NCBI GenBank assembly: GCA_963281255.1
Contig: OY725489.1
Coordinates: forward strand, 7,502,523 to 7,566,522
Length of the DNA: 64,000 nt
Source of the DNA: Aphrocallistes beatrix
Taxonomy: Eukaryota > Porifera > Hexactinellida > Sceptrulophora > Aphrocallistidae
Direction of reading: 5' to 3'
The translations under genes were made by a program, and so were the position numbers. Numbering within the stretch: position 1 is the first letter of the stretch; each line of letters begins with the position of its first letter. Below, in pieces: positions 10,637-60,221 of the stretch. A model generated the notes under the pieces. That model did no database searches and was not told the DNA's origin. It was given only the letters and a program-made list of their open reading frames with translations.

Positions 10637-11795
10637 GTGTGTGTTTTCCAGGACTTAGAGTGTGTAGGTATTTAGGGAAGATAGGTTAGGTTTAGTTCAA
10701 TGAGATTAGTGTAAATTTCAATTACTGTAGGTTTCTAGGCTATTCCGAACTATGACGAGTTTGGTATTGTGTATATTTATCTATGATACGTAGTTTGGTT
10801 GAATTGAAGTATCTGATTCGAAATGTATTTTCTCTCAACGCATATGCGAGACAATCCATGATCGCAGACTTAGGCACCCCCCAAATATTTCTCTTTTGTG
10901 CTGTTTTAAGTTACATGGGTAAACTCGTAATTTCGAAATAGCATCCCTCAGTAAATCTGTCCTGGATCCGTACCTGATTTGTAGGGTAAATTTTCTTACG
11001 TTTTTCATCGATAAATAACATTATGATATAGGGTAATATTACAAATTTTACGCTCCTAAACACTTTCAGACTTGAGATCATGAGCATAAAGGAGCGTCTC
11101 TCTGAGATAATCCCTTGCTTTGGTACTATTCAGAATTGGTAGGGTCATTTTGGACAATTTGCAGTTTGATCAATAGAAAACTGGGCTAAATAGGTTATAG
11201 CCTACAGGCTATTTCAGCAGTTTTCAATATTTTTCGGCATGGCCCTCCGCTATTGTAATTGTATTTATTCTGTGGACCCCGTTTAAACAACTGAATTTAG
11301 ATGCATTCATTTTATTTTATTTTGTAAAAAATAGACCGTATATCTGATTTGGCTTAACAACTTACTGGAAGTAAATTTGACCAAGACTTTAAACGCTGAT
11401 AGTTCTAATTCAGTGGTTCAAAACTTTCCTATATCCGATTGGTTTATATCCAAATTATTTACAAGTTAATTTCACAAAGATGCGATTCCACTGAAAACAT
11501 TATTTTATCCGAAACCTACTGTACTTATCCTTTCAAGGCAGTTATACTGGATATGCTTAGTCTTAGATACGTGGCCCAGCAAATAGATACTCCTACAATT
11601 GATATGCTTTAAGGCAGGAGTTCCATCGCGATCGACTAGAGGAAACCTTTAAAACAAACAGTTTATACAAATATTATAGTTCCATTTTGCGTTTTGTAAA
11701 ATGTCTACAACTAAGGATGCTCATATGCGAATTAATGGTAGGGATTCCCTACCGATTGAACAGATAGGCTTGCCGAGTAGCAAAAAGGAGGCGCA
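10637..11795. other. 3' flank of EML and intergenic DNA
   Basis: Follows the EML stop; the next gene (YAP) converges from the other side. A partial CAGGGTATTATACAG-family end lies at about 10985-11117 (CGCTCCTAAACACTTT and AAAGGAGCGTCTC words). No clear AATAAA directly after the EML stop. Confidence 0.5.
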
Positions 11796-12408
11796 TGCAT
11801 TAGTGCGAATTTCCCAAGTTGTCATTAGTTCTACTCTACTTTTGAGAGGGTTGTCATTTGTTCTACTCTCCCTTTGGAGGGTTGTCATTAGTTATACTCT
11901 ATGGTTTTGCTAAATATTTATTAGTTATTTGTTGACGTTTTTTTGCCTATTACACTACTAATATACAAATGGATTTAGACCTAAGTTGACTAATTCATTA
12001 AAAAATGGCAAAGAATTATGAATTATTCGAATAATTCATAATTCAAGCATGAATTAGTCAATCATGTGTGATAAAAAGGAAATTAACAATTACTAACTAA
12101 TAAAGATTATAGAAAGTGTTCCAAACATTTTCTATAGCATTGATCCATCAATCCTCGAAAACAATGTTTCCACTTCCTAAATTTCAAAATTATTCGAATA
12201 ATTTATCCCTACAATTTATGACTTTTTCTTTGCTACAACTATATTTTTCAATAATTCTTCTCAGGTTTAATGAATTATGAATTATTCGAATTATTCATTA
12301 ATTCATGAATTAGTCAACTTAGATTTAGACCCTCTCAAAAGTAGAGTAGAACTAATGACAACTTGGGAAATTCGCACTAGTGCGAATCCCAGAAATTCGC
12401 ACTAATGC
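11796..12408. repeat. Inverted-repeat element with about 50-bp arms, carrying a nested MITE
   Basis: Left arm 11796-11850 (TGCATTAGTGCGAATTTCCC ...) is mirrored at about 12331-12408. Inside the left part a unit starting GTTGTCATTAGTT is repeated about three times (11818-11910). The element at 11981-12322 is inserted in it. Confidence 0.8.
11981..12322. mobile_element. hAT-like MITE, CTAAGTTGACTAATTCAT family
   Basis: 342 bp, exact 8-bp duplication ATTTAGAC (11973-11980, 12323-12330). Inverted ends CTAAGTTGAC/GTCAACTTAG, AATTATTCGAATAATT words inside. The second copy is at 59879-60221. Confidence 0.93.
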
Positions 12409-12708: not shown

Positions 12709-15700
12709 TTAACTTTGAGAAATGTTCGTTTCGCCTGTAACAGCGTCAAGTAACATTTCAGTAGAAATCGATGCTGTGAGATTTGAGACGTCGTAATGAC
12801 TGGGAGAACCGGTATCGAAATTCAGAGGAAACTCCGTAACTTCTGATGGATTTCCGATGTATGAGTCATCAGCCAGTGTCATGTTCGACCCTGGAAATGG
12901 GATGGAATCTTGATGGAGGAGTTGAGAGGGAACGTTTGGAGAATTGTCTAGCTTTGAAAGTAGGAAACTCTCCATGGGTTGTACAGGATCCATTGCTTGT
13001 TCAGTTCCTGCTATTCCAATGCCTGCATGGAGGGAGGGATAACTTTAAACTCTATAGAATCAGATTCAAATACAGTCGACTCTGCTTAATAGGATCACAT
13101 CGGTCAGAGGACATTTTTCCCCGATTAAGCGAACAACCCTATTAACCGAAAATTTTTGAATTAGCTTCTATGCGTGAGAGCTATTCTTGTCCTGCCAAAA
13201 GTGGCCCGATTAAGCAGTTGACCCGATTAAACAGTGACCCTATTGAGCGGAGTCGACTGTAGTTAATAATATAGTGGCCTAGCCAGGATTTTCAGTGGGA
13301 GAGGAGCATAGCAGCTAGCTGGGGACCTGGGGCCTTGCCCCTAGAAGTTGACAACATTTATTAATAATATGCCCAGATTCAAAACAAAGTTAGCACAGTC
13401 GACTCCGCTTAATAGGGCCACTGTTTAATCGGATCACTTTTCGGACCGGAATAGCTCTCACACATAGAAGCTAATACAGAATATCTTCGGTTAATAGGGT
13501 TCTCCGCTTAATCTGGGCGAAATGTCCTCTGACCGATGTGGGCCTATTAAGCAGATTCGACTGTATATAATGTAATACTAGTCATCACAAAATTGCGTGT
13601 ATTAAATCCTGATAATTTATCCCAACTGAAAGTTTGGCTAATTCATTTCCCGTTTGGGCGGGGAAGCCATAGTATGGCGTAAAATATGGTCTTTACTATA
13701 AATAGAATGGACCGCTTGTTAAATAAAGTAAATGCTCAATACAAAGCAGGTTTGGATCCGGGCCTGGATTTCAGAGGGGTCAAGGGCAGTGTTATGAAAT
13801 AATGCAATTTACTCGAATAAACCGCACAAAAATTTCAAAATTAACGCGATTTCCAATAATCCTGAGGGAAACACTGGTTAAGGGGGTCTAAAATACTTTC
13901 AGGGAGGGGTGCTAAAGCCTTCTGAGGGCGTGGTTACTGCAGGGTTGGATTGAACCTAGGATTTCAGGATGGGTTAAGGGGGTCTAAAATATTTCAGGGA
14001 GGAGGTAGCTAGATGCAATCTTAAATAATAGGCGTTGAGATATCATCGATAGGTTCAAGAAATACAGTCGACTCCGCTTAATCGGGTCACTTTTGGCAGG
14101 ACCGGAATAGCACTCACACATAGAGGCCAATACAAAAATATTTTCGGTTAATAGGGTTCTCGGCTTAATCGGGTCAAAATATCCCCTGACCGATGTGACC
14201 CTATTAAGCGGAGTCGACTGTATTTTGAAAATGTGTGAGGTGTAATATGCTAAAACTAGAAATTCGCAACAATAATTTTCAGATACACATCTAAATCGTA
14301 AAGAGCTCGCTCATACCAAATTTGGTAAGAACTGAACTGTTAAATACCGCAGAATGCAGGCTACGGAAGAGCAAAAAAATAAAATGTCAGTCTTAGTGCA
14401 GCTCCATTAAAACACCAATTAAGATGAAAATGTGAATAAATGGGACTAACTCATTCTTATTATAATCCATTCAAGTGCAAAAGCTGGATTAGATACAGTG
14501 AAATGCCTTATACTGGAGTTAAGATCTTAGTTCTATCTTCAAACATAGTTTTGTAGTTAAATTATAAAATATAACGATACATTTATAAATATTAGAAGTG
14601 ATGTTTTTCGCGAAAGAATGGATGATTCAGAGCAATACCATCAAGGGATCCTACATGCGAAATGTAGTAAGAACACAGTGTCCCCGAGATCGCGGATGTC
14701 ACCCAGTCATTTTCTATGTCACTGAAGCCATATAAATGCTCGGTATTCTACAGTTAAATTTCGCAGAATGTCGCGTACGAAAAGATGAAAAAACAACATC
14801 AAAGCTAACTTGCCTGAATCTTGAGATCCCTGGTGGGAATGGGAATGAGGATAATTGGAATCGTCATTAATGTTCAGCCTTGAAAAGAGGTGTTGCTGCT
14901 GAGCTATTTCTCTGATCGTGCTTAGTTCTCCAGGCTGAAACCAAGAAGGACGGTGCTGGGGGGATCCCATGCCTAAAAGTATGTGAAGGCTCAATTCGCT
15001 TTAACTTAAATTTTCATTTTGGAGCATACACCGAAATATAATACCCAAATAAACTACTAATTCTAATTCAACTATGATAGGCAAAGGTGTAACCAACTGA
15101 GTTTTAGGGTGGCCAAGGTACGGCCAAGTTGTGGTCAGGGTGCGACACAAAATTATTCATTTGAGGCCCGCATGTGCTGCATCCTCACTACGCCTCTGAA
15201 TCAGGGGTTTATCTAGGTGATCGGCCGGTACTTATAGGTGCCAGCCTGGTATCGTCTGAGGAGCCAAGGTGCTTGCATTGTGATACGATTTGGTGCCGGG
15301 GTGCCACCACGCCTGGAATGACGAAGATAAACCCCTGTTTGGGTGCCATATAACATTTATCACCTTCCAAAAAGTGCCGGACTGGAAATCATGCTCTGAA
15401 TATAGATAAAGACTGGAAACTGATTAAAAACTTGGACTAGGGATTTTGAAGTGTATTTAGGCAAAATGAAAAATACAGTCGACTCTTAATAGGGCCACAT
15501 CGGTCAGAGGACATTTTGGCCCGATTAAGCGAAGAATCCTATTAACCGAAAATATTCTGTATTAGCTTCTATGTGTGAGAGCTATTTCAGTCCTGCCAAA
15601 AGTGGCCCGATTAAGCGGTTGTCTAACAGCCCAATATCATGTTTGTATAGATTGTTAATACATTCCTAAGCTCTATCCTGTAAGGATAGATACTTTAGGC

Positions 15701-18700
15701 ATACTTCGACTCCGCTTAATAGTGTCACTGTTTAATCGGGTGATTAAACAGTGACACTATTAAGCGGAGTCGCTGTATGCCTAGTCTCCATCCTTACAGG
15801 ATAGAGCTTAGGAATGTATTAACAATCTATACAAACATGAAATTTGGCTGTTAGATTTCGCAGGATCGCTCGGACAGACGGATGTCCTCTGAGGAAGGGG
15901 GTACAAAATTCATTTTCCCCGTTTATGAATTTGTACTATAATCACCATATTCCATTTGCTTTAAACTCTATAGCAGAGGTTTATCTAGGTGTTCGGCCGA
16001 CACTTATAGGTGCCAACCTGGTATCTTCCGAGGAGGCAAGGTGCTTGCAGTGTGATTCGATTTTGGTTCCGGGTTGCCACGATCCCTGAAATTATAAGAT
16101 AAACCCCTATTTGGGTGCCATATAACTTCTATCACATTCAAAAGAAAGTGCCGGGCTGGAAAATCCTAGATAAACCCATGCTCTATAGCAGCGGTTTTCA
16201 ACCTTTTTGGGCTGTGGACCCCCTATAAAAATTTTCCTATATCCTGTGGACCCCCTCCTATTAACTGTAATACAATATTTCGAATCCTGTGGACCCCCTA
16301 ATATCTTCTGTGGACCACTAAGGGGTCCATGGACCCCAGGTTGGGAACCACTGCTCTATAGGGTAATGCGGAAATGGTTCGACTTTTCGAAAAGGAAATA
16401 GTTCGAATTGCAGATTTAAGAAATAGTTCGAATTGCAGATTTAGGAAATAGTTCGACTTTTTACCATTAGGATTAATGGTGGTTTTTAGTGAGCTATTTC
16501 CGTTTTTTTGCGAACTATTTCCACCATACCCTCTATAGCCCTAGGCATTTCCCCTCTCTCCTACTGGCTACGCCCCTGCAGAGAAAAAGTGAAAAAGGGT
16601 TAACACCGATTAGAAAAGGGTTGAACCTGGCTGGGGGAAGAGTCCTGAGGTATGTTGAGGCAGGCTGGGATGCGTCCAAGAAGTGGACCTGGTGTTATGG
16701 TCGATATAGAAGACATCTCCTTCAGGTGTGATTCCTCTCTCCCATCCTTTCGGCAGAGTTAAGGTCATATGGTCTACTTGAGAGTGAGCTCTGCTATGTC
16801 GAACTGGGTAGGCGGAATTCTGATGCTGCATCATCCGTGAGTTGGGATGGGAAATTGAAGGGAATTCAATGCTGTTTTGAGTTGAGATATTTGGATGCTG
16901 CTCGTTAGCGGTGAAAAGGAAGCCAGACTAGAAGAAAATTAGTCAAAGAAGAAAATCACAAAATGTGTGTATCATGGTAATTTAACACAAGGCTCCCAAA
17001 ATGGTGGTGCGGGGACAATTTAGTAAAAAGATCAGTGTTTCCCTCAGGATTATTGGAAAGCGCGTTAATTTTGATTTTTTGTGCGGTTTATTCGGGTAAA
17101 TTGCATTATTTCACAACAAAATCACATTATTCGACAAGCAAAGCGTGCTAAATAGCGCACTTAACGCGCTTAGTGGAAAACACTGAAAAAGATCCAATCA
17201 CTCATAAGCATAGGCGTAACGTTTTCTTTTTTTTTCAAAAAGTTGGGGGCTCCGAGCGAGCGTTCAAGTCTAGAGGGCATGTCCCCTCAAAATGTTGACC
17301 CTTGCACCCTTAGAAGTCAGTTCAGATGTTATCCTAGGATCATCAACCACATTTTACTACGAATTTTTAAATTAAAATGACAGAAAACAAGACTAAACAA
17401 TCAAACAACATTTCATTATGAGAGGTTATCCGAACTTGTTTTGCCTACTGATTGTCCGCTCAAATAATTTGGACCCCATACAATACCATTTTGTGCAGTC
17501 AATTAATATCGATTATGTTTCAAAGTGAGCAACCTCATCAAAATTGGAAGGACATTCTCCAACACGTAGAGCACTTCAATGCTTTTTGATATTTTTGGAA
17601 GTTTTTTTCTTTTAATAAAAAATATTCATAATCAAAATAAGATTTTTGGAAAAATGTCCCTAATTGTGTATCAATGGGCAAGGTGTCCCAGATGAAAAAA
17701 ATAGGGAATCATTAGGAGGTAAACTTATCTAGGTAAAGTAGATTTTGGAGAAGAACGAACAAAACAGCAGAAACCAATATAGTGCACTAGTATTTTATCT
17801 AAATAAAAATGATAATAGACAATAAACACGTGTAGATTGTTAATGAATTGAAATGCTGACTTCATTAGGAAACATAGCTGAAAGAGATAACTCAACATGC
17901 ATTTTCACTCTTCTATGAGCTAACTTACACGAGTGTCCCGCTTTTTTTATTCTATGCATACTATTTTTTATTGCGTCCTGTCATGTCCCGCTTTTATCAT
18001 GGCTCTAGTTGGCATGTATGTAAATGTCAGGAAAAAGTAACTTTGCAAACCTTGCCCCCAACCCCCCCTCAAAAAAACTAGATCGGTCACTGTCCCTCTA
18101 ATCTAGGCCATGCTGATGGTGGTTAGCCGTTTAACTGATTAACTGAATCCTTGGCTATTGTAAAAGAAACTTAAAAATTGAAAAATATTAATAAAGTCAA
18201 CAAGGATACTAACCTGCTGAGTTCTCCTTCCTTCCATCTGCTCCATCCAATTTTCCTGATGAAACTGTGGTTGTGTTTGCTGTTGTTGCGGTTGCGGTTG
18301 TTGAGAATTGTAATCTTGAATCCCGAATTCAGTATTCACAGGCGGTTGAAGATTATTTTGTCCGTAACAAGTAGCAGGACTGGAACGAGAACGCGTGTGG
18401 TTTGAGTGTGGGTAGCCGCGTGTTCTAAAAAAATATTTTCAAGAGTATAAATTCCTAATCTTGCAAATTATGGAACTGAAACTGATAACTGAAACTGAAA
18501 GTAATTGAAATTGAAAATTTGAGCAAAATGGGTGTGGCATCACCTCAAAATTTAACAATTTATGGGTGTAAAAGAAAACCATAGATTCTCGATAAAAGAA
18601 TTGCGGATAATACTAACAAATTTCGACTGGTGTTCGTATTAACGAGATTTAACGAGAATGTGGAAAGGGTGTGGTAAGGATGTGACAAGGGTGTGGTAAA

Positions 18701-21700
18701 GATGTAGTAAGGGTGTGGTAAAGATGTGGTAAAGGTGTAGTAAGGGTGTGGTAAGGTGTGGTAAGGATGTGGTAAAGATGTAGTAAGGGTGTGGTAAAGA
18801 TGTGGAAAGGGTGTGGTAAGGATGTGACAAGGGTGTGGTAAAGATGTAGTAAGGGTGTGGTAAAGATGTGGTAAAGATGTGGTAAGGGTGTGGTAAGGTG
18901 TGGTAAAGATGTAGTAAGGGTGTGGTAAAGATGTGGTAAGGGTGTGTAAGGATGTGGTAAAGATGTGTAGTAAGGATTTGGTAAGGATGTGGTAAGGGTG
19001 TAGTAAGGATGTGGTAAGGGTGTGGTAAAGATGTGGTAAGGGTTGGTAAGGGTGTGGTAAGGTGTGGTAAGGGTGTGGCATTTTTCTAGAAGGTCAAGAG
19101 AGGGAGGCAATTAGCCTCCCTGAAAATATTTTCGCCCCCTCCCTGAGTTTTTCCTCTAGAAAATCCCTCCATGTTAATATTACATGTGTATGCATAGGCG
19201 CAACTGCGGTCATTTTCGGTGAGCACGCGCCCACATACAAAGGTATAGGGCAGCCCTTCTGCTAAGAAAAGAAAAGCGATATGCACACCCAGCGACCAGA
19301 ACCTAGTTGCGCCTATGTGTATACAGTCGACTCCGCTTAATAGGGTCACTGTTTAATCGGGTCAGCCGCTTAATCGAGCCACTTTTGGCAGGTCCAGAAT
19401 AGTTCTCACACATAGAGGCTAATACAAAATATTTTCGGTTAATAAGGTTCTCCTCTTAATCGGGGCAAAATATCCCCTGACCGATGTGTCCCAATTAAGC
19501 GGAGTCGACTGTATATATAATTTGCTTATTTAACTCATGATATTCTCTCCTCTAAACCTTATTTCCAAAACATATATTTCAACTAAAATTAGTTTCAGCC
19601 CAGATCAGAGGTGTACTTTTGACTAATCTAGCTTCAAAAGGGACCATTTTGTACGATCGGACTGGTTTCAACCTGAACACTTTTTAGTCTCAACCGGACC
19701 ACTTCACACCTGATGACTACGGCCTTGCACTAACTAAGGTGGTACGTATCGCCTGAGGTGATGTACATAGGTGTAGATAGGAAGCACAAAAATATTGCAA
19801 CACGAATCGAGGGAATTGAAAGGTTCTCTTGAGCATGGAGATCAAGACAGAACCTTTCAATTCCCTTGATTCGTGTTGCAATATTGTTGTGCTTACTAAT
19901 AGTACACCTATGTACATCACCTGAGGCGATACGTACCACCCTAGTTAGTGCAAGGCCGTAGTCATCAGGTGTGAAGTGGTGCGTTTGAGACTAAAAAGTG
20001 GTCAGGTTGAAAGCAGTTCGATCGAACTTGGTGTTTGTAGAGCTAATTGATGGGGCGGAAGGGTTTCGACTCCATCAATGTATTGGCTCTGTCATTACCG
20101 ATTGGGTGAAAAGATCTCGGCCCCATCAATCCTGCGGGTAGATGGGACTGGCCCCGTCCCATCGGTAAGGGCGCCTTTGGTTGTGAGATAATACCATTTT
20201 GTCCAAATTATGGTTGGCACGACGAGATGGAAGAGTTGAGAGGCTTGTTAAGGATCTCACAGCCATATGTACGTATATATGCCCACCTCATAGTGACTAT
20301 GCCACTGGGCCAAAGATAGTCGGTTACGCCTCCCGTAAATAGTTCTAGCTAAAGTTTTACCTCTTAATCCACCAAGATTTAAAAGGAACATTCCTTATAG
20401 ATACAGTCGAAGTCGGTTTTTAACTCTCACGCCTCTGTAAACATTGTTTTTTTTTAGCAGTATAACTCCATTACAAAATAGTCGGAGGGTTTGTAACCTA
20501 GGCTATGGACAAATAAAAACGACTTCGATTATAATATAATAATCAAACTGACAAAAAAAGATTTTTATCACTATTCTTAGGGAGGGTGTCACGACTTGCG
20601 AAGTTCCCAAAATATTAGAAAGCAGATCACGGTTCTCAAAAGGATGAAAGTACTGATATACGAATATACGGAAGGACGTGTTACGCCCTAATCTGTAGCT
20701 ACCAATCAAGCCGATGTAAGAGATAAATCAAGAGCACAATTAAGAACGGTAGAATTATCAAGTTTAGACAATTAACAATAAGTGAATACGTTGGTAAGAT
20801 CTACTAGCCTACAACTTGAATATATAAGTCTACGGATCCTAATCAACGTGGGAGGTAAACTAAAACTAAACTAAGCTAAGATTATAAATAACCTATTACA
20901 GACGGAAGTAGAACGCCGTTTATGGTATAATAGCAGGCCTCTCAACTCTCAAGATCTCATCGTGTGTCTCACGATTTAGAACCACTGTTCATAATACTAT
21001 TTCCCCATATCTCACGATTTGTCACTTGCCATCACACGATTTAGCTAAATTACAGGTTGAGAGGCCTGATAATAGCATATCTCTATAGCAGCGTTTCCCG
21101 CTGAGCACGTTAAGCGCGCTATTTAGCACGCTTAGCTTGTCGAATAACTTTTTATTGTTAAATAATGTAATTTGCCCGAATAAACTGCACAAAAATTGCT
21201 AAATTAACCCGCTTTCTAATAATTCTGAGGGAAACACTGCCCAATAGGGAGGAACTACTCAGGGTCGCTTATTATGAACATTCGTTTATTATGATGAACT
21301 AGTCTCAATTTCATTTTAGATAGGATTTGTATTGAATAAAGTTCGCCTAATACGAAGTATCTCTATTATGAACAGATTTTTTGGTCCCCTGGTGGTTCAC
21401 AATAAGCGACCCTGACTGTATATACAAAAATAACTAACTTCATCATATTGGGGTTGAGAGGTGTCTGAGTGGCTCCTGGGAAAGGTGTGGTGGCGCCTGG
21501 GAATGGAGTAGTGCCAGTATTCGGCTGTGGGAACTGATCAAATGCAAATGGGTTCTGGTTCGAGCCACTCGACAGCAACTGCCGACATAACTGTTTCGAA
21601 CTTGTGTGTTGAGTCTTGAAAAAGGACTGTGGAAGTTTGCGATCTTTCATAGGTTTACTTTTGAGGTGAGAATTAGATTTCAGATTAAAAAGCTCATCGA

Positions 21701-23175: not shown

Positions 23176-24098
23176 TACTAATGATTTTATCACAAAAGAT
23201 GTAATTCAATAGCTTTGAATGCTATCCATTAACATAAATCAAATGTAATCAAGGAATCCAAGGAATAGGTCTTACTATTACACAGGACAGCATTGACGTC
23301 AATCGGTAGAAAAAGATAAATTAAAATCATATTTAAGGGCAGTGAGCCAAAAATAATTAAATTTTAAATTTTTTAACAAATTTGTAATTTTATACAAGTG
23401 GTATGGTTATGACTAAAAATAATTAAAAAGTGCATTAAATTTTATTTACAACCATAAAAATGATTTTGGGACGAAAATAAGTTTTTGTTTTCGTTCTCAT
23501 CCATGGTTAATCCATGATATAATCAGTAGTCTATCCTTGTATAATATTATCCATGACCTGATACATATGAGTCTCAATACGTACATCAACTTTATACCAA
23601 AGAGATATCAAATGTAGTTAAGGATATATCTTCTTTATTGAATCCCTCCCCTTTCCATCCCTCTTGATTTCAAAACCCACTCAATTCTCACTGATTTATA
23701 ATTATTTATTGAGAGCAAAGCAGAAATAATATAATGTGTGAATTTATTGAAACTTTATAACTAGCATTGACTCTGACTGAGTTCACCATTCCCATAATTT
23801 GACTTTTGGACTTCATTAATAAATAAAAATCAGCTATAAAAAATATTAACTACTGTATCTGGAAAAATAATATGGTTAAAATGACTTTAGATGGATCATA
23901 GGTACCCCGAACCTGGGGTGCGGAGAGCTAGACAGGGGGGGCAAAAGGGGTCACAGCCCCCCCATCGGGAAAAATTTAATTATCTGTCGAGGAATGAATT
24001 TGAATAATTTTAGAAAATACACTAATTTAGCTCCCCTGTCGGGGAATTCCTGGCACCACCCCTGGAGCTAGATACTAGATTCGAGACATATTCCTGTG
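23176..24098. other. Intergenic DNA between YAP and amphiphysin, part 2
   Basis: AT-rich, no ORF or complete element; a C-rich patch at 23900-24060 resembles worn GC-rich MITE sequence. Confidence 0.5.
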
Positions 24099-24230
24099 CC
24101 CGGTTTTCAACCTTTTTTGGCTGTGGACCCCCTCCTATTAACTGTAACACAAAGTTTCTAGTCCTGTGGACCCCCTGATATATTTTGTGGACCACTAAGG
24201 GGTCCATGGACCCCAGGTTGGGAACCACTG
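24099..24230. mobile_element. hAT Charlie-like MITE, CAGYGGTTYYCAACC family
   Basis: CCGGTTTTCAACC to GGTTGGGAACCACTG; shorter than 16189-16353, left end worn. Confidence 0.75.
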
Positions 24231-27400: not shown

Positions 27401-30400
27401 TCAAAACTTGTAACTTTGAAACACCCTAACTCGAAAACAATCTCAGGGACAATTCGACGTACCTTTTTTTTCCTGAATAAGCACCCCGGATTTTGGGGAC
27501 AAGGGGGACAGTTGGGGGACAATGGGGACAGGGGGGACAAGGGGGACAGGGGGGACAGAGGGACAGGGTGGGAACAAGGGAGCGACAAAGGAGGGACGAT
27601 GGAGTGGACAGGGGAGTGATATTGTGTATGAAAGGGATTATCATGAAATATGTATCAAAGCAAAAATCTGGGGTCTACCTCCCCCTAGAAACTCCCGTGC
27701 TCAAAAGTGAACTAAAATTCTTTTAGATATCCGACCGTGTTATCGACCCATACATGCAGTACCTATCTCGATTTCCCATCTATAAAGACAAGTTAGATAA
27801 AAGAGGGAGGAAACTGTTGGATTATGATTCCTGCAAACGCGAGGTCGAGAGTATGCATATAAAAATAACCAAAAATAAAGAAGGGAAAGATCAGAAGATG
27901 ATTACGCGTTTGGCAAGCTTAGAGAATGATTTTCAGAATTGTAAAGATCAGTATGATAAGATTACAGATGAGTTGTACGAAGATCTGACTCTACTCCATA
28001 ATAACCGTGTTGTGTTCTCTGCCAAGATCCTAGAAAACTTTTTTCAGGTAAATTTAAAGTATAAAAAGTTGCTTATCAAAATTTTTATCTAAATTGACAA
28101 ATCTTCTATAGTGTTAATACTGATAGCGTATACACTGCCTGAACAAATGTATTCGTACACTCCATAATTCCTCATACAAATAGTTATAATACTGATGTAT
28201 TTAGCGAGTCAAAGTATTTATTTGGTAAGAGATACGCTTAATTTAACTTCAAATTCGAATTATCCATATTCGAATTACTCACTTTTTAATCTTTCAACTT
28301 GTTTACACTCCCACAAGGTTAAAAATTTTCAAACTGTGCCACCTCATACCACCAATGCCATCATATACAATGGTGATTACTCGTGACATGTGGCATAGGA
28401 AAGCAAATGCTGAAAATACTTAATCTTGAAGAAGAGTAATTAAGTTGAAAACTTATAAAGTGGGTAATTTGAATGTGGAGAATTCGAATTTGAAGTCAAA
28501 TTAAGTGTATCTCTCACAAATTAAATATTCTTGAAACGCTAAATAAATCAATATTATAACTAGTTGGTTGTATGGGGAATTATGGGGTGTACGAATACTT
28601 TTGTTCAAGCAGTGTATATAATGTTAATACACGCGGTACGGCTGGGTACGGCGAGCACCGTACCATCGGAGTAGGTTCCGGTAGGTTTTTTTAAAAAATA
28701 TTGGGTACCTATATTACATAGGCGCCGAACCCGGGGGGGCTGGGGGGGCTCGAGCCCCCCTGGATTCGAAGATGGTCCATAGACGCAATACAAATTTTAG
28801 GGATGAACCCTCCTAGAATTCCAAAATTTCCCAAAGATTTTACAAAGTTCGGCGCCCCTACCGATATATTGATTAAGCAAACACAATGTCATTAACAATG
28901 TATTGAATGGATCCACAATATCAATATTTTCAATATCTTATATATCAAAACGCTAGGATTTTTTTTTGTGTGTTTGTCCGAATTGATTGAAGAATTGGCA
29001 TGTCGTAGAGGCGCCCACAGGGCGACTCTGCGGACACAAAGTGTCCGCAAGCCGCGCAGCGCAAGTAAGCGAATTATTCGAGCCAACATTTTGCTTTTTG
29101 CCTGCATCTTGTGATAGTATTTATTCAATGTTATTTTTGTGCCAAATACTGAATTTCCATCATTTTAGGCTGAAGAAACTCTGCACTCAGAAAGTACTAA
29201 ACTCTTCGCCTTATCTCTTGAGAAATCCAGTGAGCTGCACACCAAGGGAGATGAACATGTCTACGATATTGAAGTTACGCGTGATTTGGCCAGCGAGAAA
29301 TTTGAGAAATTATCCGTAATATCAGACGAGTCAAACTTTGAACCACCCCACCGGCAGAGATCCGGGACTTTGGAAAAAGCTAGCCTATTCCTGACTAACC
29401 CAATTAGAAGGAAAAGTGCGAGAATTTCTCATTCACTTGGCATAGACTCGAATAATGATCTCGAATTGAGCAATGGCCGTTTGGTGGTGATGTCTAACTA
29501 CAGTCCTGAGCAGTCATTGGAATCAACCTTCAACTGTACGTAAGTCAATGTTGTTCCAATTCACATTTCCGATATTTTGTGTTTCTCTATGCTTGCCAAC
29601 CTCTTTTGTATTTAAAGAATTTCTTTATAACAGAAAATCACTAGATTATAATCATTCTAGTGCAGCTCCTATAGGGAGCGGATTGTATCCATGGTTTATC
29701 TAGGATTTCCCAGTCCGGCACTTTTTTGAAGGTTATAAAAGTTATATGGCACCCAAACAGGGGTTTATCTTGTAATTCCAGGGGTGATGGAAATCTAGCA
29801 CCAAAATCGAATCACACTGCAAGCACCTTGGCTCCTCGGACGACACCAGACTGGCACCTATAAGTGCCGGCCGAGCACCTAGATAAACCCCTGATTGTAT
29901 CTAGCCAACCCATCAGGGAGGGAAGGGGTTAACACCCCCCTCCCTGTAAATATTTTAGACCCCTTAACCCCCTTGAAATCCGGGGCTGGATCCAACTCTG
30001 ATAGAGAGATGTCTTTTAATCCGAATTCCACCAAATTTCATTTATGATGCAGATATTCGCGAAATTCCATCACTTCCGGTTTTTAAAACTATTAATATGT
30101 AATACCTCTACTCAGCGGTGTTTTGTTAAAAATAGAAGTGGGGGGGCGCTTCCTTCCCGTAAAAAAGTTATATGTTTTTTCGTGAAACTTTAATCCCCTG
30201 ATGGCAGGCGCGGATACCAGTTTGGACTCAGGGGAGGCCAAAAGCGAGCGGAGCGAGCGCAGGTAATGGGGGGTCTGGGGGGTAACCCCCCAGAAAAATT
30301 TTTAAACTTAAGGTGGTCAAATATCATTGTACATCAATTCTTATCAAATCTCACACGGGATTTGAATTTCCTTCCTGTAACCTGATTACCACTTTGTGCT

Positions 30401-33400
30401 TCGCGCCAATTCATCACAAGCGTTTGCGAGTATATTTAGGTTTTAGTCAACATAGTGATAATGATACAATGTAAAAAAGTGGGGGGCAGCGCCCCCCCGC
30501 GCCCCCCCAAGCGAAAAAAGTGGGAGGGCGGCGCCCCCCCCCCCAAAACACCACTGCCTCTACTACAAAGTTGTGTTTAAATATATACACTGCTTGGCCG
30601 AAAGTATTGGAAACTATTTTGCTTTGCAGCATAAGTAATAATGAAATGGGTCTATGGACGCCAATCAATTATAGCCACCAGGTTTAATTAAATCTAACGG
30701 CAATTTCGAAATATACACACTCGAATAAATAAATCTAGAAGCTTCCTATAGACAATCCTTTCCAAAGCGTAATTACTAGCACTGTACCACCTTGTGCCAC
30801 TTGTCACTTGTTATGACAATTATATGGGAACGAGCGGATCAAGGTGGCACAAGCGATATTAATTACCCTTTAGGCATATAGATGAACAGAAAACTTCTAA
30901 ACTGAGTAACTCGAGTGTGTAGATTTCGAAGTTGATGTCAGATTTTCAGTGGCTGTCGTAATTTTAATGAATTGGCCTACATGGATAGACCCATTTTAGT
31001 ATTATTTATGATGCAATGTGGTGTTCCAATACTTTTGGCCAGGCAGTTACTTAAGTGAGACCTCAATGACTAATATAAGGCATCTTACTGTGGAGCTGCA
31101 ATATCGGTCTGTCGATCGATCTTTTCAATTTTATTCGTTGATAACTAAATTTAGGTATATTATCCCTGCATTATATGATACAGCATATCCTACTCTAATA
31201 ATGCCTCACAGTAAAATAACCAAGGATGCGGTGATAGCCGAATGGATTAATACACGATTAGCCTAAAATCGTTAACCATGTAGGATAGGCATTAAGAATG
31301 TATTACCAGCATATATAAACATGACATCAAAGTACGTAATCCGTTGTCAAAATTTCGATTAGTCATCATATCATTGCTCAACAGATCATTTTAAGCACGA
31401 CTTTGGCAATTTTCTAAGCTATTTTAAGCCTACTTCTAAATGTTATTAAGGTATAATTTTTGTGTAGAACTAAGATTTGTACGAGTTGATTTGAAAAATT
31501 TAAAATTTTTCAATGGAATGTTGTTGCATTCCTACGTTGCTATGGTAAAGCATTTTGATCAGTTGAGCCATATCCTGCAAACTGTAAGAACTAGGTCTTC
31601 AAATATGATCGTATTTGATATGCAATTGGCTACTTCTTATTAGGTAATAATACGATTTAAACTTCTAAATTCACAGACTATAGAGTTATGCGACAATTTA
31701 GTGTTTTGGTCACATTCTTAAAATCAACCCATAACTCAAAACTCGTTGAATTTAGAAGTTCAAGTTGTATTATCACCTAATAGGAAGTAGTCCATTGCCT
31801 ATCAAACACGATCAAATTTGAAGATCTAGTTACTACAGTTTGCACGAAATGGCCCAAACTGACCAAAATGTTTAACCATAGCAACGCAGGAATGTAGCAA
31901 CATTCCATTGAAAAATTCTAAATTTTTCAAATCAACTCGTACTAATCTTGGTTCTACACAAAAATCACACCTTAATACCATTTAGAAATAAGGTTAAAAC
32001 AGCTTAGAAAATCGCTAAAATCGTGCTTAAAATGACCTGTTGCGCAATGATATGATGACGAATCGAAATTTTTCCAACGGATGTTTATATATGCTGGTAA
32101 TACATTCTTAATACTTATTCTGCATGTTTAACGATTTTAGGCTAATCGTATATTAATCCATTCGGCTATTACTTCATCCCTAGTCCATGATTTTCAGTCT
32201 ACTGTGAGGCATTATTAGAGTAGGCTATGGATACAGCTATATTTGTAGTATTTGCGGCAATATTTCCTTGCCATTGTTTACATTTTGATATATTGTTGAT
32301 ACGCGTGAATTATTAACGATCAAAAACCCCTGAGTTTAGCTTTAAAACACTTGGATTTGGCTCTAAATCCCGAGGATAGTTGGCAAGTATAGGTGTGTTG
32401 CCCGACTTACTACGAAATGTGCCTCTCAATCTAATATAACATTTATATTTTAGTTAAGGCAACTGAAGACACCGAATATGATTCATCGATTGAACAGAGA
32501 AACTTTCTTGATGAGAATATGGTCATTGTGCCAACAGCAGAAGGACCTCGGACTGAAATCCAGCCTAAATTCAGCCTAGATTCACGAATGCATTCTCGTA
32601 AATTTAAACCGAAAAAGCCGTCCAGACCGCAGACATTCTATCAGCCAGAATATGACACTGATTTCATTAAGAAGATTTCTGACGACTATCTTCATACCCA
32701 GGTGCTCGAATCCATACTAATTTTATAAGTAGAAAAGAAACCGGCGTTTCTAAGGAGGTGAAGGGGGTGATAACAGGGGAGGGGGGGCATCCAGGGCATT
32801 TGCCCCGATTTTGATTCTGCGGCCCCGGATTTCATTCGACTACCTAAGCCAGTGGTTCCCAACCTGGGGTCCATGGACCCCTTAGTGGTCCACAGAGATA
32901 TCAGGGGGTCCACATAATTCGAAATTTTGTATTACGGTTAATAGGAGGGGGTTCACAGAATGTAAGAAATTGCTATAAGGGGTCCACAGTCAAAAAAAGG
33001 TTGAGAGCCGCTGACCTGGATTTTCTTTGGCCCTGCCTTGCCCCGGGCTTGGAAAATTCCTGCGGCCGACCCTGGGTGATAGTACCCTTCTTTCTCCTTC
33101 CCTTTTTTTCTCGGATTGCTACCTTTATTATGCTTGGGATTTATAATAGAAATATTTCGAAAGTGACTTTTACTTTTTTTCCCTCTTTTCACCCCTCCTG
33201 TCTCTGCAAGCTAGAAACGCCACTGCTAAAACGAATATTCAGAATTAATTCATTTTGATGACGTAATTTAATGCTAAAAGCGAGTTCTCAACGACTAATC
33301 TATGGCATTTTAATATGTAGATTCAGATTTTCACACTTTAAAAGTAATAATGTGAATATTTTATGAGGTATTAACATATGGATATATACATATTTTCACA

Positions 33401-39376: not shown

Positions 39377-42300
39377 ATGGATGTGACGCTATCACACATT
39401 CTCGAGGCGACTGTATCGAACGATAAGCAGCAATTGGAAGACGCACAGCGTTTCCTCGAAGAAGCAGCGGCCAAAAACCTACACATCTTCCTGCACGAAC
39501 TTTCGAAAGAACTTGTCGACCAATCAAAAAATGGGATAGTTAGGATGGCTGCTGGTTTACAGTTGAAGAATTACCTCACTTCTAAAGATGATAAAACGCG
39601 GTCGGAGTACCAGAGACGATGGTTGCTAGCAGAAGATCGAATACGCGATGAGATAAAGTCCAATATTCTCCGTAGCCTCGGGACGGAACAAATTCGCCCT
39701 TCGTCCGCTGCGCAAGTTATCGCTGCGATTGGCTGTGCCGAATTGCCTGAAGGAAAATGGACGGATTTGATAGCTTCTCTCCTCACTTTTGTGACTGGTG
39801 CTGGTAGCTCCGAGTCTCTCAAAGAGGCAACGTTAGAAGCTTTAGGTCAGTTAGGGGAGTAATGCGGAAATGGTTCGACTTTTTGAAAAATGAAATAGTT
39901 CGAATTGCAGATTTAGGAAATAGTTCTACTTTTTATCATTAGGATTAATGGTGGTTTTTATGTGAACTATTTCCTTTTGTGGAAAGCCGAATTATTTTCG
40001 TTTTTTTGCGAACTATTTCGACCATACCTTTAGGGGAATGGCGGACGTTTCGTCGCTGATATTTCTTTGAATGATATTATTGAATCCTCACTTTCATTCT
40101 CCCATTCATTCTAACAAATAATAAATGACAATCACCCACCCCCTCACGAAATACTACTCTCGCGTGCCATTTTATATTATTTCAAACTCAAAATGCCCAA
40201 TTTATATTTGCTCTTATACAAAATACTCTCCAAAATGCCCACTGACTCTCATATCAATTCTATTCAGCTTTAGAACAAATTCATGTTTCCCAACAGTTTG
40301 TAATTCCATTCTAAAATATCAGCGACGAAACATCTGTTTACCCAGTTAGGGATATTATTTTAGCACTACAGCTCCTATAGGGAGATACCATTGTGGCGGT
40401 AATGCGGAAATGGTTCGACTTTTCGAAAAAGGAAATAGTTCGACTTTTGATCATTTGGATTAATGGTGGTTTTTATGTGGACTATTTCTTTTTTTGGAAA
40501 GTCGAACTATTTCCACCATACCTTGCAAGATCTTGAGACTTCATTCTCTAGGTCAGGGTTTTTTTTAAGGTTGAGACCTTGGTATAACTCAGCTTAATCA
40601 CGGTGTAACCACCGAAAAAATATTAACCAAATATTGCCCACGCTGCAGCGGCCGACCCAAATCGTGGTGTAACTGATCGCTCTTTAAAAAAACCCTGCTC
40701 TAGGTTATCTCTGTGAGGAGATTTCACCTCAGATCATCACTGGACAATCGAATAACATCCTGACAGCTATCATACAAGGCATGCGTCGAGAGGAAACCAG
40801 CAATCGAGTGCGACTCGCCGCTTGTAAAGCTCTTCTCAACAGTTTGGACTTCACGAAAGCAAACTTCGATACAGAGCAAGAGAGACACGTTATTATGCAG
40901 GTACTGCATTGAATGGTAGAGCTGTGCTATCGTTATGTTGACCAAGATTTTAGTAGAGGTCCCATTGGGTATAGAGCAAAGTTTTGGAAAATAGAATAAA
41001 ACCTGGGGGGGGGCAAGAGCGTGCGACGGTAAGGGGGCCTTGAAATTTTTAAAAATATTAGATGCTCAAATATCGATTAACAGCTATTGTTGTTACCTAG
41101 GGAAAAGAAAATCTCGGACAATAGTGGAAGAAAAATGTAATTGGGATATATATTTAAACTCAATTAACATAATTTGGGGTTTAGTTTTAATCTATAAGTT
41201 TGTGTGGAGTCCTGCCATACCACAGCTTCCTTCACTGCTCCACTGCCCGGCACCACGGTCCCCCACAGGCTCCAAACCTGGGGGGGGGGGCCCTAGGTAC
41301 CCACACTTGGCGTCTATGGTATAGGGAGATGTTCTTATGAAGGGCCGTAGCCATTTTTACGAATTATTAACGACAGGTGGGGCCACTAAAGTACCACCCA
41401 ATACACAAACCAGACCAAGATATTTGAACACTACATTATTTCCCATACAAATAGTAGTAGATTGGATCTCTTCATGAAAGAAATACAATAAAACTCTGGG
41501 AGATACTAAGGATCTGATTTCAAATTCAAAATCGTTCATCAACCCCATTGAATAAATTAATCAACCTGTGCACTGAATGAAATTCATCAACATCTTGTAT
41601 AGTAGTTAAAATTGACATATGTAGCACATACAATTATTGATAACAAGCGCGCTTCGCTTGCTTGCGCTGCGCGGCTGGCGGACACTTTTTGTCCACCAGA
41701 GGCGCCCGTTGACCGCCTAGGCTCAAATTTATTAATTATAAAGTAGATAACATCTCTAAATACGTCTGTCTTACTGTTATAATCGATTTGAAAACGTTTG
41801 AATCGTAAACCCGATAGGCGGATCTTCGTTTGAAGGGGCTAGAGCAGTGATTCTCAAAGTGGGCCGTAGAGCCCCCCCAGGGGGCGCTGAAAGGTTGTTG
41901 GGGGGCGCTATAATGTAAGGGGGCGCTGGGGGGGCGCTAATGTGTTTTGTTAGCAATACATCTACGATATTTGTACCTCAAAAAAATGTGTATTCCAGAA
42001 TATTGATGGTCAATCTTTGAAACAAATTTCAACATTCACCGTAGTTGTTAGAGCTAGAAAGTACAATAATCACACTGGTTTCCCGTGACTAATTAATACA
42101 ATAATTACACTGTTGATGGCTTACGAATCATGAGTAAGGGGAGGGGGCGGTGTCGACACTAAAATCCTGATTAGGGGGCGGTGTGCTAAATTTGTTTGAG
42201 AAACACTGGGCTAGAGCAAGGCTAAGCCCCCAAGGTTGCGTTTTGTCCCCCAATGTTATAAAATGTTATTGTCTGCGCCGTCCCTGATCATTCTGATATA

Positions 42301-45300
42301 TGCAGCTTACCCTTACCAGCAGAAGATAAATAGTTAGCATCCATTGTCCACTTCCCACATTACATTTATTTCTAGGTGGTATGTGAAGCGACACAAAGCG
42401 AGGAACTCCAGGTTCGTGTGGCTGCACTACAGAATTTAGTCAAGATAATGTCTCTCTACTACCACTACATGGAACAGTACATGGCTCCAGCTCTCTTCGC
42501 TATTACCATCGACGCAATGAAATCCGAGATAGAAGAGATTTCGCTACAAGGCATCGAGTTCTGGTCTACTGTGTGCGATGAGGAGGATAGCTTGTCCTAT
42601 GAGATGGATGAGGCCACACGCCATGGACACCCACCTGGTCGGCTCAGCAAGCATTACGTGAAAGGCGCCCTCCAGTACTTAGTCCCGATCCTACAGGAAC
42701 TGATGACGCGTCAGGAAGAAGTAGATGACGATGATGAATGGAATCCTTGTAAAGCGGCTGGCGTTTGTATCATGTTAATGGCTAATGTCGCTGAGAACGA
42801 GATTGTTGATAAAGTAATGCCGTTTATTGACGCGAATATTAAAAGCGAAGATTGGAGGTTTCGAGAGGCGTCGATTATGTGTCTTGGCTCGATTCTGGAC
42901 GGTCCGGATGAGGAAACGCTGGGAAATATCGTTTCGCAGGCGCTTGGCGTTATGATTGATTTGCTGAGTGACCCCATGGTACCTGTGAGAGACACAGCTG
43001 CGTGGACTATTGGTAAGTCTTTTATAAATTTATGCATACCGTATTTCCCTGAATAAGCGCCGGGTCTAAAGGGTGAGCGAAATAAATAAGCGCCGGGGCT
43101 TGAATAAGCGCCGGGGCTCGAATAAGCGCCGGGGCTCGGGTAAGCGTCGGACGCCGGGGCATTTAGTTCTCTGAACATCATATCAAACTAGTATTCTCAG
43201 TAGTGGCATAGATACAAGTGCTTTTTGAAACATTACATTATCCTTTTTTAACTAACATTCTCAGTTGTGGAAAAAATAAAAGTGCCAGTCAATGTAGTAA
43301 ACAAAAAAAAGAGCGCCGGGTCAAAATAGCGAATGAAAAAAATAAGCGCCGGGGCTTGAATAAGCGCCGGGTCTAAAGGGTGCACGAAATAAATAAGCGC
43401 CCGGGCACTTATTCGAAGCAATACGGTAAATTTACTTTAGTTTATAATAGGTACATAAAGTAAACAAATTTCCAAAATAGGCTAGAGACTAACTTCCGAC
43501 GGTTAACATGGGGTTTTCAGGGGTGTAGATTACGAATATCATATTTTCGAAGCTATAATATATATTAATTGTTTACTTTTGTTATAGTACATTCACCTAT
43601 TCATAAGCGTTTATCTTCCCCGAATCAGTCCTAGTCTTTTATATACAGTCGACTCCGCTTAATAGGGCCACTGTTTAATCAGGTCAACCGCTTATTGGAC
43701 CACTTTTGGCAGGACCGGAATAGCTCTCACACATATAAGCTAAGGCAAAATATTTTCGGTTAATTGGGAACTCCGGTTAATCGGGCCAAAATGTCCCCTG
43801 ACCGATGTGACCCTATTAAGCGGAGTCGACTATAGTACATAAGTAGTAATTAAAGAATTGCTCATATTTTAAAGAATCTTATAATGTTTTAAGTAAGAAC
43901 TGTCACTAAGTGATTCCTTACTAACATGACACCTCGACATTATCTTTCAAAACCAAAAAAATTCCCTTCCCCTTCTTCTCTTTCATAGGTCGAATGTGTG
44001 AAGAGCTGCCAGAGGTAGTGGTACAACATCCTTCCTTAAATAATCTGTTGCAAGCACTACTCATCGGCCTTGGAAGTGTGCCTCGCGTCGCTACCAACAC
44101 TTGCTGGGCTTTCATCTCCCTTGCAGAAGCGGCGTATAATAACGTTATTTCTACTGAGGAGGAAGATCCCGACACCTACGCTCTGTCTCCAATCTTCGAG
44201 GAATTGATTTCCAAGTTGCTGAATTGTAGTGAGCGGAACGACTCGTCTGGTTCAAATCTTAAAAGTGCGGCTTATGAGACTCTTATTGAGGTAAGATCAA
44301 GGCCGTGGTAGGCACAGGTGTGAAGTGGTACGTTTGAAACCAGTCCAACCGGACCCGTGGCTACCTTTACCTTGAAAATAGTGCAGCTTCTAGTATGCAC
44401 ACATGGCACAACTTGGCATATTCGCTTCCTATTGCTTTGCAGGATGGGCGCGATCTATACTTTTGTATGACAAACTGAGAACTCTGGGTTCTTTTGGTTC
44501 ACAACCAAGGACATTTTAGGTAGGCACGTGCCTCCTAAAATGGCCCTATTTATTGAGACACCCATATGTGCCGAACCCCGGGGGACTGGGGGGGCGCTCG
44601 CTCCCCCCTTGGATTCGAAGATGGCCCATGGACATGGGTTTATTTAGGTTATTTCCAGTCAGGCACTTTTTGGTGATAAAAGTTACATGGCACCCAAACA
44701 GGGATTTATCTTGTATTTCCAGGGGTGATGCCAACCCAGCACCAAAATTGAATCACACTGCAAGCACCTTGGCTCGTCGGACGCTACCAGGCTGGAACCT
44801 ATTAGTGCCGGCCGAGCAGCTAGATAAACTCCTGCCCATGGACGCAATACAAAATGTAGGGCTGAACCTCCCCTAGAACCCCAAATGATCCATAGATTTC
44901 CAAAGTTCAGCGCCCCTGGGGACACCTTTGAGGCAGTGTTGCCAACAGAACCATCTTGGGTCCAAATGGTCTGAAATTTCGTATTACTGTTAATGAGAGG
45001 AGTTAGAAGAATGTTAAAAATTGCACTAGGATATCTAAGGTCTGATTTCAATAAAATGTGGTTCCATTTCTATATGGCGTAGATGTGCATAATATATTTT
45101 TAATGAAATCCCAGCACATCCGGGTTTTATTTTATAAGCGTATACAGTGTAATTCGCTTATTACCAACTCGGGGTTTGTTCACAAAATAGTTGCTAATAA
45201 GGGAACAGAATTAATACAAAATATATACTTGGAGCTTGAAAATTGGTTGCTAATCAAGCAATGTTGCTAGAAAGGCGAACTCCACTCAAACTTGCCAACT

Positions 45301-54043: not shown

Positions 54044-54215
54044 GGTAATGCGGAAATGGTTCGACTTTTCGAAAAAGGAAATAGTTCGAATTGCGGATTT
54101 AGGAAATAGTTCGACTTTTTATCATTAGGATTAATGGTATCTTTTTTGCGAACTATTTCCTTTTTTGGAAAGTCGAACTATTTCCGGTTTTTGTGCGAAC
54201 TATTTCCACCATACC
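54044..54215. mobile_element. hAT-like MITE, GGTAATGCGGAAATGG family
   Basis: 172 bp, exact 8-bp duplication GTATTTAG (54036-54043, 54216-54223). Confidence 0.93.
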
Positions 54216-58670: not shown

Positions 58671-58875
58671 CATGGTTTTATCTAAGATTTTCCAGTCCGG
58701 CACTTTTTTGGAGGTAATAAAAGTTACATTGCACCCAAACAGGGGTTTATCTTGTAATTCCATGGGTGGTAGCAACTCAGCACCAAAATCGAATCACACT
58801 GCAAGCACCTAAGTTCCTCAGATGATACCAGGCTGGCACCTATAAGTGCCGGCCGAGCACCTAGATAAACCCCTG
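58671..58875. mobile_element. hAT-like MITE, CATGGGTTTATCTAGG family
   Basis: 205 bp, exact 8-bp duplication CCCCGAAG (58663-58670, 58876-58883). Confidence 0.93.
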
Positions 58876-59878: not shown

Positions 59879-60221
59879 CTAAGTTGACTAATTCATGAAT
59901 TAATGAATAATTCGAATAATTCATAATTCATTAAGCCTGAGAAGAATTATTGAAAAATTTAAACTTTTAGCCAAGAAAAAGTCATAAATTGTAGGGATAA
60001 ATTATTCGAATAATTTTTAATTCAGGAAGTGGAAACATTGTTGTCGAGGATTGATGGATCAATGCTATAGAGAATGTTTGGAACACTTTCTATAATCTTT
60101 ATTAGTTAGCAATTGTTACTTTCCTTTTTATCACACATGATTGACTAATTCATACTTGAATTATGAATTATTCGAATAATTCATAATTCTTTGCCATTTT
60201 TTAATGAATTAGTCAACTTAG
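59879..60221. mobile_element. hAT-like MITE, CTAAGTTGACTAATTCAT family (reverse)
   Basis: 343 bp, exact 8-bp duplication CAGTATAT (59871-59878, 60222-60229). Ends 66 bp before the start codon at 60288. Confidence 0.94.

What the first reader, a model, noticed from the sequence alone, without database searches (positions are those of the whole stretch)
15966..16538. Three unrelated MITEs in series, all using the same 8-bp target CTCTATAG
CTCTATAG occurs four times and the three intervals are complete members of three different families (CATGGGTTTATCTAGG, CAGYGGTTYYCAACC, GGTAATGCGGAAATGG). hAT elements duplicate 8 bp on insertion, so after one insertion the target exists twice and can be hit again. 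The pattern implies a landing site that is renewed by each insertion, a ratchet that could build MITE chains. A fourth family member (21089) also starts directly after a CTCTATAG, which argues for target preference rather than chance.
Basis: partly seen in the sequence, partly recalled or inferred. Interest (0 to 1): 0.82.

Follow-up and report, generated by a model that had tools for sequence, protein, structure and literature searches.

The report
Three small transposons sharing one target
Three short mobile DNA elements from different families sit head to tail, separated by the same eight letters, most likely because each landing copied the landing site and left it open for the next one.

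Summary
CTCTATAG lies at 15966, 16181, 16354 and 16531, and the three intervals are complete short inverted-repeat elements (E1 207 bp, E2 165 bp, E3 169 bp). Other copies fix their ends: 5 of 5 E1 copies carry perfect 8-bp duplications of different sequence; E3 has one perfect and one 7/8 elsewhere; the other two E2 copies share its ends but show no clear duplication. The block does not recur in the window. Best reading: three separate insertions into one octamer, each duplicating the target.

The "ratchet" is only partly supported. CTCTATAG is a good but not exceptional target, 8-14 times the average octamer. In simulation that gave no chain of three in 6000 runs with 23 insertions and 3 in 2500 with 60; a sharper preference with 60 insertions gave 24%. 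So sharper preference, added attraction to the junction, or luck is needed. E1 and E2 are not fully unrelated: their outer decamers match at 6-8 of 10 positions. Tandem insertion around one duplication is in print for Dada transposons, and non-nested MITE arrays for plant MULEs. No host genome was held, so chains could not be counted.

The parts
15966..15973 (+). CTCTATAG, first copy (left duplication of E1)
15974..16180 (+). E1: 207-bp MITE, ends CAGAGGTTTATCTAGG / CCTAGATAAACCCATG; 4 other copies in the window, 4 of 4 with perfect 8-bp TSDs
16181..16188 (+). CTCTATAG, second copy (between E1 and E2)
16189..16353 (+). E2: 165-bp hAT-like MITE, ends CAGCGGTTTTCAACC / GGTTGGGAACCACTG, internal CTGTGGACCCCCT repeats; 2 other copies without clear TSD
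16354..16361 (+). CTCTATAG, third copy (between E2 and E3)
16362..16530 (+). E3: 169-bp MITE, left end GGTAATGCGGAAATGG, right end CTATTTCCACCATACC, GGAAATAGTTCG repeats in both orientations; 3 other copies, one with a perfect TSD GTATTTAG, one with 7/8, one with none
16531..16538 (+). CTCTATAG, fourth copy (right duplication of E3)
21081..21239 (+). Not part of the chain: separate MITE (CAGCGTTTCCC...GGGAAACACTG, 21089-21239) after another CTCTATAG; its right flank is CCCAATAG (6/8)

Best explanation
The block records three separate cut-and-paste insertions of short non-autonomous elements into the same octamer. The first insertion duplicated CTCTATAG. A second element inserted exactly across one of the two copies and duplicated it again. 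A third did the same, leaving X-E1-X-E2-X-E3-X with no element interrupted. Shown: structure, boundaries, 8-bp duplications in the E1 and E3 families, distinct families, no recurrence as a unit in the window. Inferred: that the insertions were separate in time, that E1 came first (it is the most diverged from its family), and that reuse is helped by a modest preference of 8-bp-TSD transposases for nTYnnRAn-like octamers, perhaps with some further attraction to the transposon-target junction.
For: Four identical octamers exactly at element ends. Family boundaries fixed by other copies with other TSDs. Neither the block nor any joint of it recurs among the 4 other E1, 2 other E2 and 3 other E3 copies. 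Outer ends of the block (CAGAGG... and GGTATGG...) match at 3 of 10 positions, so it does not look like one element. Divergence from family majority: E1 16/187, E2 3/131, E3 2/143; Fisher P = 0.03 (E1 against E2) and 0.006 (E1 against E3), fitting different ages. Target preference: 1.34 bits in the TSD against 0.37 +/- 0.15 for 300 random sets, CTCTATAG in the top 0.4% of window octamers, or 1.4% without the 21089 element; CTCT register in 3 of 19. Spacing: 2 gaps of 8 bp or less among 27 hand-listed elements against 0.10 expected, P = 0.005.
Against: The measured preference alone makes a chain of three very improbable (0 of 6000 and 3 of 2500 runs). The other two E2 copies have no clear TSD, so an 8-bp TSD for E2 rests on this copy. 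Three of E1's four other TSDs (GATACAAT, CTTCGGGG, TCCATGGG) show no liking for CTCTATAG. Of the 10 CTCTATAG places left after masking, only the chain and 21089 carry an element at the octamer by the flanks seen. No empty site or second allele was available. The order of insertion rests on few sites and on majority sequences that include the copies themselves.
Confidence: 0.82

Rival explanations
1. One composite element: the three pieces moved and inserted together as a unit.
For: All three lie side by side with one octamer. E1's left end and E2's right end match at 7 of the first 10 bases, so E1-E2 could in principle be cut as one; macrotransposition of neighbouring P elements has been proposed as a source of composite MITEs (PMC1562414, passages).
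Against: No second copy of the block or of any joint among the 9 other copies in the window; the nearest approach is a weak E2-like stretch (66 bp, 71%) at 44938-45000, 103 bp from an E1 copy. Inner octamers equal the outer ones exactly at family ends, which a composite unit would not need. Block ends match at 3 of 10 positions.
Confidence: 0.06
2. Allelic mixing: different individuals carried different MITEs at the same hot octamer, and out-of-register exchange between alleles at the short duplications joined them.
For: Needs the site to be hit three times, but in different lineages, which spares the requirement that a duplicated copy be hit. Fits identical octamers equally well. No call tests it.
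Against: Exchange would have to use 8 bp of homology between different inserts, twice (inference). No allele data to test.
Confidence: 0.07
3. Assembly or haplotype-collapse artefact.
For: None seen; the window's origin and reads are unknown.
Against: Joints would rest on 8-bp overlaps only, too short for an assembler to join reads (inference). The flanks 15856-15965 and 16539-16838 have no other match in the window at E 1e-4.
Confidence: 0.03
4. Chance coincidence of octamers beside elements, with no common target.
For: CTCTATAG is common in this window (10 places after masking), so some elements will lie beside it.
Against: All four copies sit at zero distance from element ends in one register; E1 and E3 families make 8-bp duplications elsewhere.
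Confidence: 0.02

Closest known systems
Tandem Dada-U1A_DR / Dada-U1B_DR insertions in zebrafish U1 snRNA genes (PMC3706591, passages)
   Same: Two different transposon families inserted in tandem and separated by one copy of the target duplication (GCGAAT): the same renewed-target logic.
   Different: Dada elements target RNA genes with 6-7-bp duplications. Here the target is a loosely preferred octamer in DNA that is unique in the window, and there are three families.
SaTar arrays of non-autonomous MULEs in guayule and rice (PMC5907723, passages); clustered Ac-mMITEs in pineapple (PMC8449440, passages)
   Same: Non-nested linear arrays of small elements joined through a target sequence that each insertion leaves available; mixed families in the SaTar arrays.
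   Different: There the linker is a microsatellite and the elements are Mutator-like, with 9-10-bp TSDs where not in microsatellites. Here the linker is exactly one 8-bp duplication.
hAT MITEs such as Mar (PMC3517528, passages)
   Same: 8-bp TSD; TIR CAG(G/A)GGTAGGC resembles the CAGNGGTT ends of E1 and E2; Mar's TSD consensus nnnTAnnn and an example CTCTAC(C/T)C resemble CTCTATAG.
   Different: No transposase for E1 or E2 is known here, so hAT membership is by ends and TSD length only. The words nested, tandem and adjacent do not occur in that paper's main text.
CMITE tandem arrays of corals (PMC2872659, passages)
   Same: Full-length MITEs in a row.
   Different: Elements and spacers there are highly similar to each other and the authors favour replication slippage over repeated insertion.

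Membership tests
hAT MITE (E1) | 8-bp target site duplication | tested here: met
   5 of 5 copies, five different octamers
hAT MITE (E1) | short terminal inverted repeats beginning CA | tested here: met
   CAGAGGTTTATCTAGG / CATGGGTTTATCTAGG, 8 of 10 outer bases; that hAT ends usually begin CA is recalled and agrees with Mar
hAT MITE (E2) | 8-bp target site duplication | tested here: inconclusive
   1 of 3 copies
hAT MITE (E2) | terminal inverted repeats beginning CAG | tested here: met
   CAGCGGTTTTCAACC / CAGTGGTTCCCAACC, 7 of 10 outer bases
hAT MITE (E3) | 8-bp target site duplication | tested here: met
   2 of 4 copies perfect, 1 of 4 with 7/8, 1 of 4 none
hAT MITE (E3) | ends of the CA... 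type | tested here: not met
   ends GGTAATGCGG / GGTATGGTGG; 0-3 of 10 matches to E1/E2 ends. Superfamily left open; others also make 8-bp TSDs, e.g. P (PMC1562414, passages) and some Merlin families (PMC8101967, passages)
hAT MITE (E1, E2, E3) | mobilised by a hAT transposase | not tested
   no host genome held; transposase genes were not searched for in the window (Pfam was run on 6 host-gene-like ORFs only)
hAT target motif | nTnnnnAn (Hermes; hobo in earlier work) or nnnTAnnn (Buster) | tested here: met
   CTCTATAG fits both by letter. Over 19 other TSDs: 6 of 19 nTnnnnAn (P 0.008), 4 of 19 nnnTAnnn (P 0.06)
Serial-insertion array (Dada/SaTar kind) | different complete elements, not nested, joined by the target sequence | tested here: met
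Serial-insertion array (Dada/SaTar kind) | recurs at many loci | not testable with these tools
   one window; no genome held

The most novel reading that the evidence does not exclude
A transposon-target junction is itself a preferred landing place for unrelated transposases: each insertion renews an octamer that several 8-bp-TSD machineries accept, so chains grow without nesting, across superfamilies (E1/E2 hAT-like, E3 with other ends), and become precursors of composite MITEs, since E1's left end and E2's right end could be cut together.
Probability: 0.25. Interest if true: 0.72.

Novelty: new variant of a known kind. Interest (0 to 1): 0.46.

Why it matters
If chains of this sort are common, target choice of 8-bp-TSD transposons is not independent of earlier insertions, statistics of insertion and nesting are biased, and a simple route exists from single MITEs to composite ones. 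The claim can be tested directly by counting MITE-TSD-MITE-TSD chains in any MITE-rich genome against the target logo.

Tried and rejected
Host genome search: none is held for this window. Related copies elsewhere: one exact pattern each from E3, E2 and E1 in viral contigs gave 0 stretches; one pattern of a frequent TA-flanked MITE of the window in genome contigs gave 0. These collections hold viruses and prokaryotes, so the absence says little.

Empty site within the window: 300-bp flanks of 13 CTCTATAG places were compared with the window; the DNA next to the chain (15856-15965, 16539-16838) had no match at E 1e-4, so no paralogous empty site was found. The shared CTTTAAACTCTATAG at 13050 is followed about 15 bp on by a TA-flanked MITE and shows no further similarity to the chain's flank; taken as chance.

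Excision footprints of CTCTATAG: of four patterns only the loosest matched, at 9033, 22182 and 59174, none convincing.

The 20 TSDs were chosen by hand. Of 39 rows, 13 were kept, 2 were chain members and 24 dropped (11 of the AGTCGACT family, which is TA-flanked; 4 with ATTCGAAT; 9 others such as GGCATGCC at 56515). From the 56 candidates (AGTCGACT rows not printed) only 2 further ones were taken (23933, 33842), and 5 came (15202, 29690, 44633, 39858, 21089). The detection asks for near-perfect TSDs, so it cannot date insertions. The profile pools 13 families and may blur family-specific preference; the simulation inherits this and includes 21089 in its weights. The 27 elements are also hand-listed and include copies without a TSD.

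Literature: ten searches answered. One search returned no paper and mostly off-topic ones. I read passages of 13 papers, no whole paper. In these listings and passages I saw no report of a chain of hAT MITEs on one 8-bp TSD; most subscription papers are outside the library. Genome ARTIST (PMC4744444, passages) mentions multimers by nested transposition or self-insertion. From memory, double P-element insertions at one duplication and MITE multimers in rice and maize are known; not checked here.

Full report
What is there. Between 15966 and 16538 the octamer CTCTATAG occurs four times in the same orientation, and the three intervals between copies are complete short elements: E1 (15974-16180), E2 (16189-16353), E3 (16362-16530). 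E1 has ends CAGAGGTTTATCTAGG and CATGGGTTTATCTAGG (second end reverse-complemented, here and below), E2 CAGCGGTTTTCAACC and CAGTGGTTCCCAACC, E3 GGTAATGCGGAAATGG and GGTATGGTGGAAATAG. None is interrupted by another.

Are the boundaries right? Self-comparison of the window finds four more E1, two more E2 and three more E3 copies, plus weak partial E2-like matches, the longest near 11215 and 44938-45000. All four other E1 copies lie between perfect 8-bp duplications: CTCTGAAT (15202-15393, whose 3' part is damaged), GATACAAT (29690-29893), TCCATGGG (44633-44834) and CTTCGGGG (58671-58875), read in the orientation of the element. E3 at 54044-54215 has GTATTTAG on both sides; at 39858-40028 GTTAGGGG/TTTAGGGG (7 of 8); at 40398-40522 none. 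The two other E2 copies (24098-24230, 32850-33013) end at the same 3' base and one keeps the 5' CAG, but flanking duplications are not recognisable. The second is passed within the window: none of the 9 other copies abuts a member of another of the three families; the nearest case is the weak E2-like stretch at 44938-45000 (66 bp, 71%), 103 bp from an E1 copy.

How special is the octamer? CTCTATAG is found 15 times against 1.6 expected from 100 shuffles. Three of these (2224, 52338, 54843) are in one repeat family and 60065 is in another. After masking the chain to one copy and two repeat copies, 10 remain against 1.6-3.7 from Markov models of order 3-5. I have no explanation for this mild excess. 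The element at 21089-21239 starts after one of them; its right flank is CCCAATAG, 6 of 8, and it belongs to a separate family with a sister at 17033-17185.

Target preference. I collected 20 insertions of the 8-bp class outside the chain (17 with perfect duplications, 2 with 7/8, and the 21089 element with 6/8; choice of rows told under Tried and rejected). Their strand-symmetrised profile carries 1.34 bits over the octamer; 300 random sets gave 0.37 +/- 0.15, at most 1.04. By this profile CTCTATAG weighs 13.9 times the window average (top 0.4%), or 7.9 times (top 1.4%) if 21089 is left out. Without 21089, 3 of 19 duplications have CTCT in the chain's register (CTCTGAAT, CTCTAGGT, and GGCTAGAG, which is CTCTAGCC on the other strand; P = 0.0003), 6 of 19 fit nTnnnnAn (P = 0.008) and 4 of 19 fit nnnTAnnn (P = 0.06). 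CTCTATAG fits both published hAT patterns: nTnnnnAn for Hermes (PMC10368747, passages) and nnnTAnnn for Buster-type Mar, for which CTCTAC(C/T)C is given as one flank (PMC3517528, passages). An octamer acceptable to more than one machinery is a fair reason why different families share it.

Is preference enough? Simulated insertion of 23 elements with these weights (21089 included) gave some shared site in 4.2% of runs but a chain of three in 0 of 6000. With 60 elements a chain of three came in 3 of 2500 runs. Squaring the weights, without added attraction, gave 1.7% (23 elements) and 24% (60). A tenfold added attraction of existing duplications at the measured weights gave 1.5% (23) and 21% (60), a hundredfold 47% and 99.6%. 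So a sharper preference than the pooled profile shows, together with more insertions than I could recognise, would do without any added attraction. The profile pools 13 families and the case was picked by a reader looking for oddities, so these numbers do not prove added attraction; they show that renewal of the letters alone is weak at the measured preference. Elements of this class are somewhat clustered: 4 gaps of 40 bp or less among 27 hand-listed elements against 0.48 expected (P = 0.001); with the chain counted as one, 2 against 0.41 (P = 0.06).

Order. Against family majority sequences E1 of the chain differs at 16 of 187 sites, E2 at 3 of 131, E3 at 2 of 143; E1 against E2 P = 0.03, against E3 P = 0.006. 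The chain's E1 is the most diverged of 5 E1 copies, its E2 the least of 3 and its E3 the least of 4. This suggests that E1 landed first, but majority sequences of 3-5 copies include the copy tested and the families may have had several sources.

What it most likely is. Three insertions in series into one octamer, renewed each time. E1 and E2 have kindred ends (8 of 10 between left ends) and are best called hAT-like MITEs by ends and TSD length. E3 makes 8-bp duplications but has other ends, so its superfamily is open; if it is not hAT, two kinds of transposase used the same octamer, which would be the more surprising reading. The rivals (composite unit, exchange between alleles, assembly error, chance) are less likely for the reasons given in their sections.

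What is known. Tandem Dada-U1A_DR and Dada-U1B_DR insertions separated by one target duplication are in print (PMC3706591, passages), and non-nested MITE arrays joined by microsatellites are described in guayule, rice and pineapple (PMC5907723 and PMC8449440, passages). The authors of the guayule paper called the uniformly non-nested multimer architecture not previously described. Palindromic target motifs that extend past the duplication are reported for TIR elements of Drosophila (PMC3276498, passages). I saw no report of a chain of three families on one 8-bp duplication in the listings of ten paper searches and passages of 13 papers; the library is open-licence only.

Host. Pfam matches of six ORFs of the window to EML beta-propellers, importin-beta and HEAT repeats, and an SH2 domain mark it as eukaryotic DNA, from an animal as I read it; the species is unknown, and no genome is held. 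No stop-to-stop ORF of 150 aa or more overlaps the chain; it appears to be non-coding DNA between the EML-like gene and the importin-beta gene.

Noticed in passing
19194-19350: An inverted-repeat element with ends ATAGGCGCAACT (flanks GTGTATGC/GTGTATAC) is abutted by a TA-flanked CAGTCGACT MITE that begins inside the right flank repeat: perhaps another insertion into a duplication.
   Followed up: partly
39858-40028: An E3 copy sits about 12 bp after a likely splice donor (TTTAG/GTCAGT, inferred) of an importin-beta exon.
   Followed up: no
window-wide, e.g. 1572, 8207, 31678, 61979: CTCTATAG remains commoner than Markov models predict after masking (10 against 1.6-3.7), with several copies not beside a recognisable element end.
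   Followed up: partly
15622-15855: Large imperfect palindrome that contains ends of the TA-flanked CAGTCGACT MITE, just upstream of the chain.
   Followed up: no
40398-40522: E3 copy without any recognisable duplication, 31 bp from another 8-bp-TSD element (40554-40697, TSD CTCTAGGT).
   Followed up: partly
11981-12322 and 59879-60221: Family with inverted ends CTAAGTTGACTAATTC and 8-bp duplications (ATTTAGAC, CAGTATAT), unlike the CAG-ended elements.
   Followed up: no
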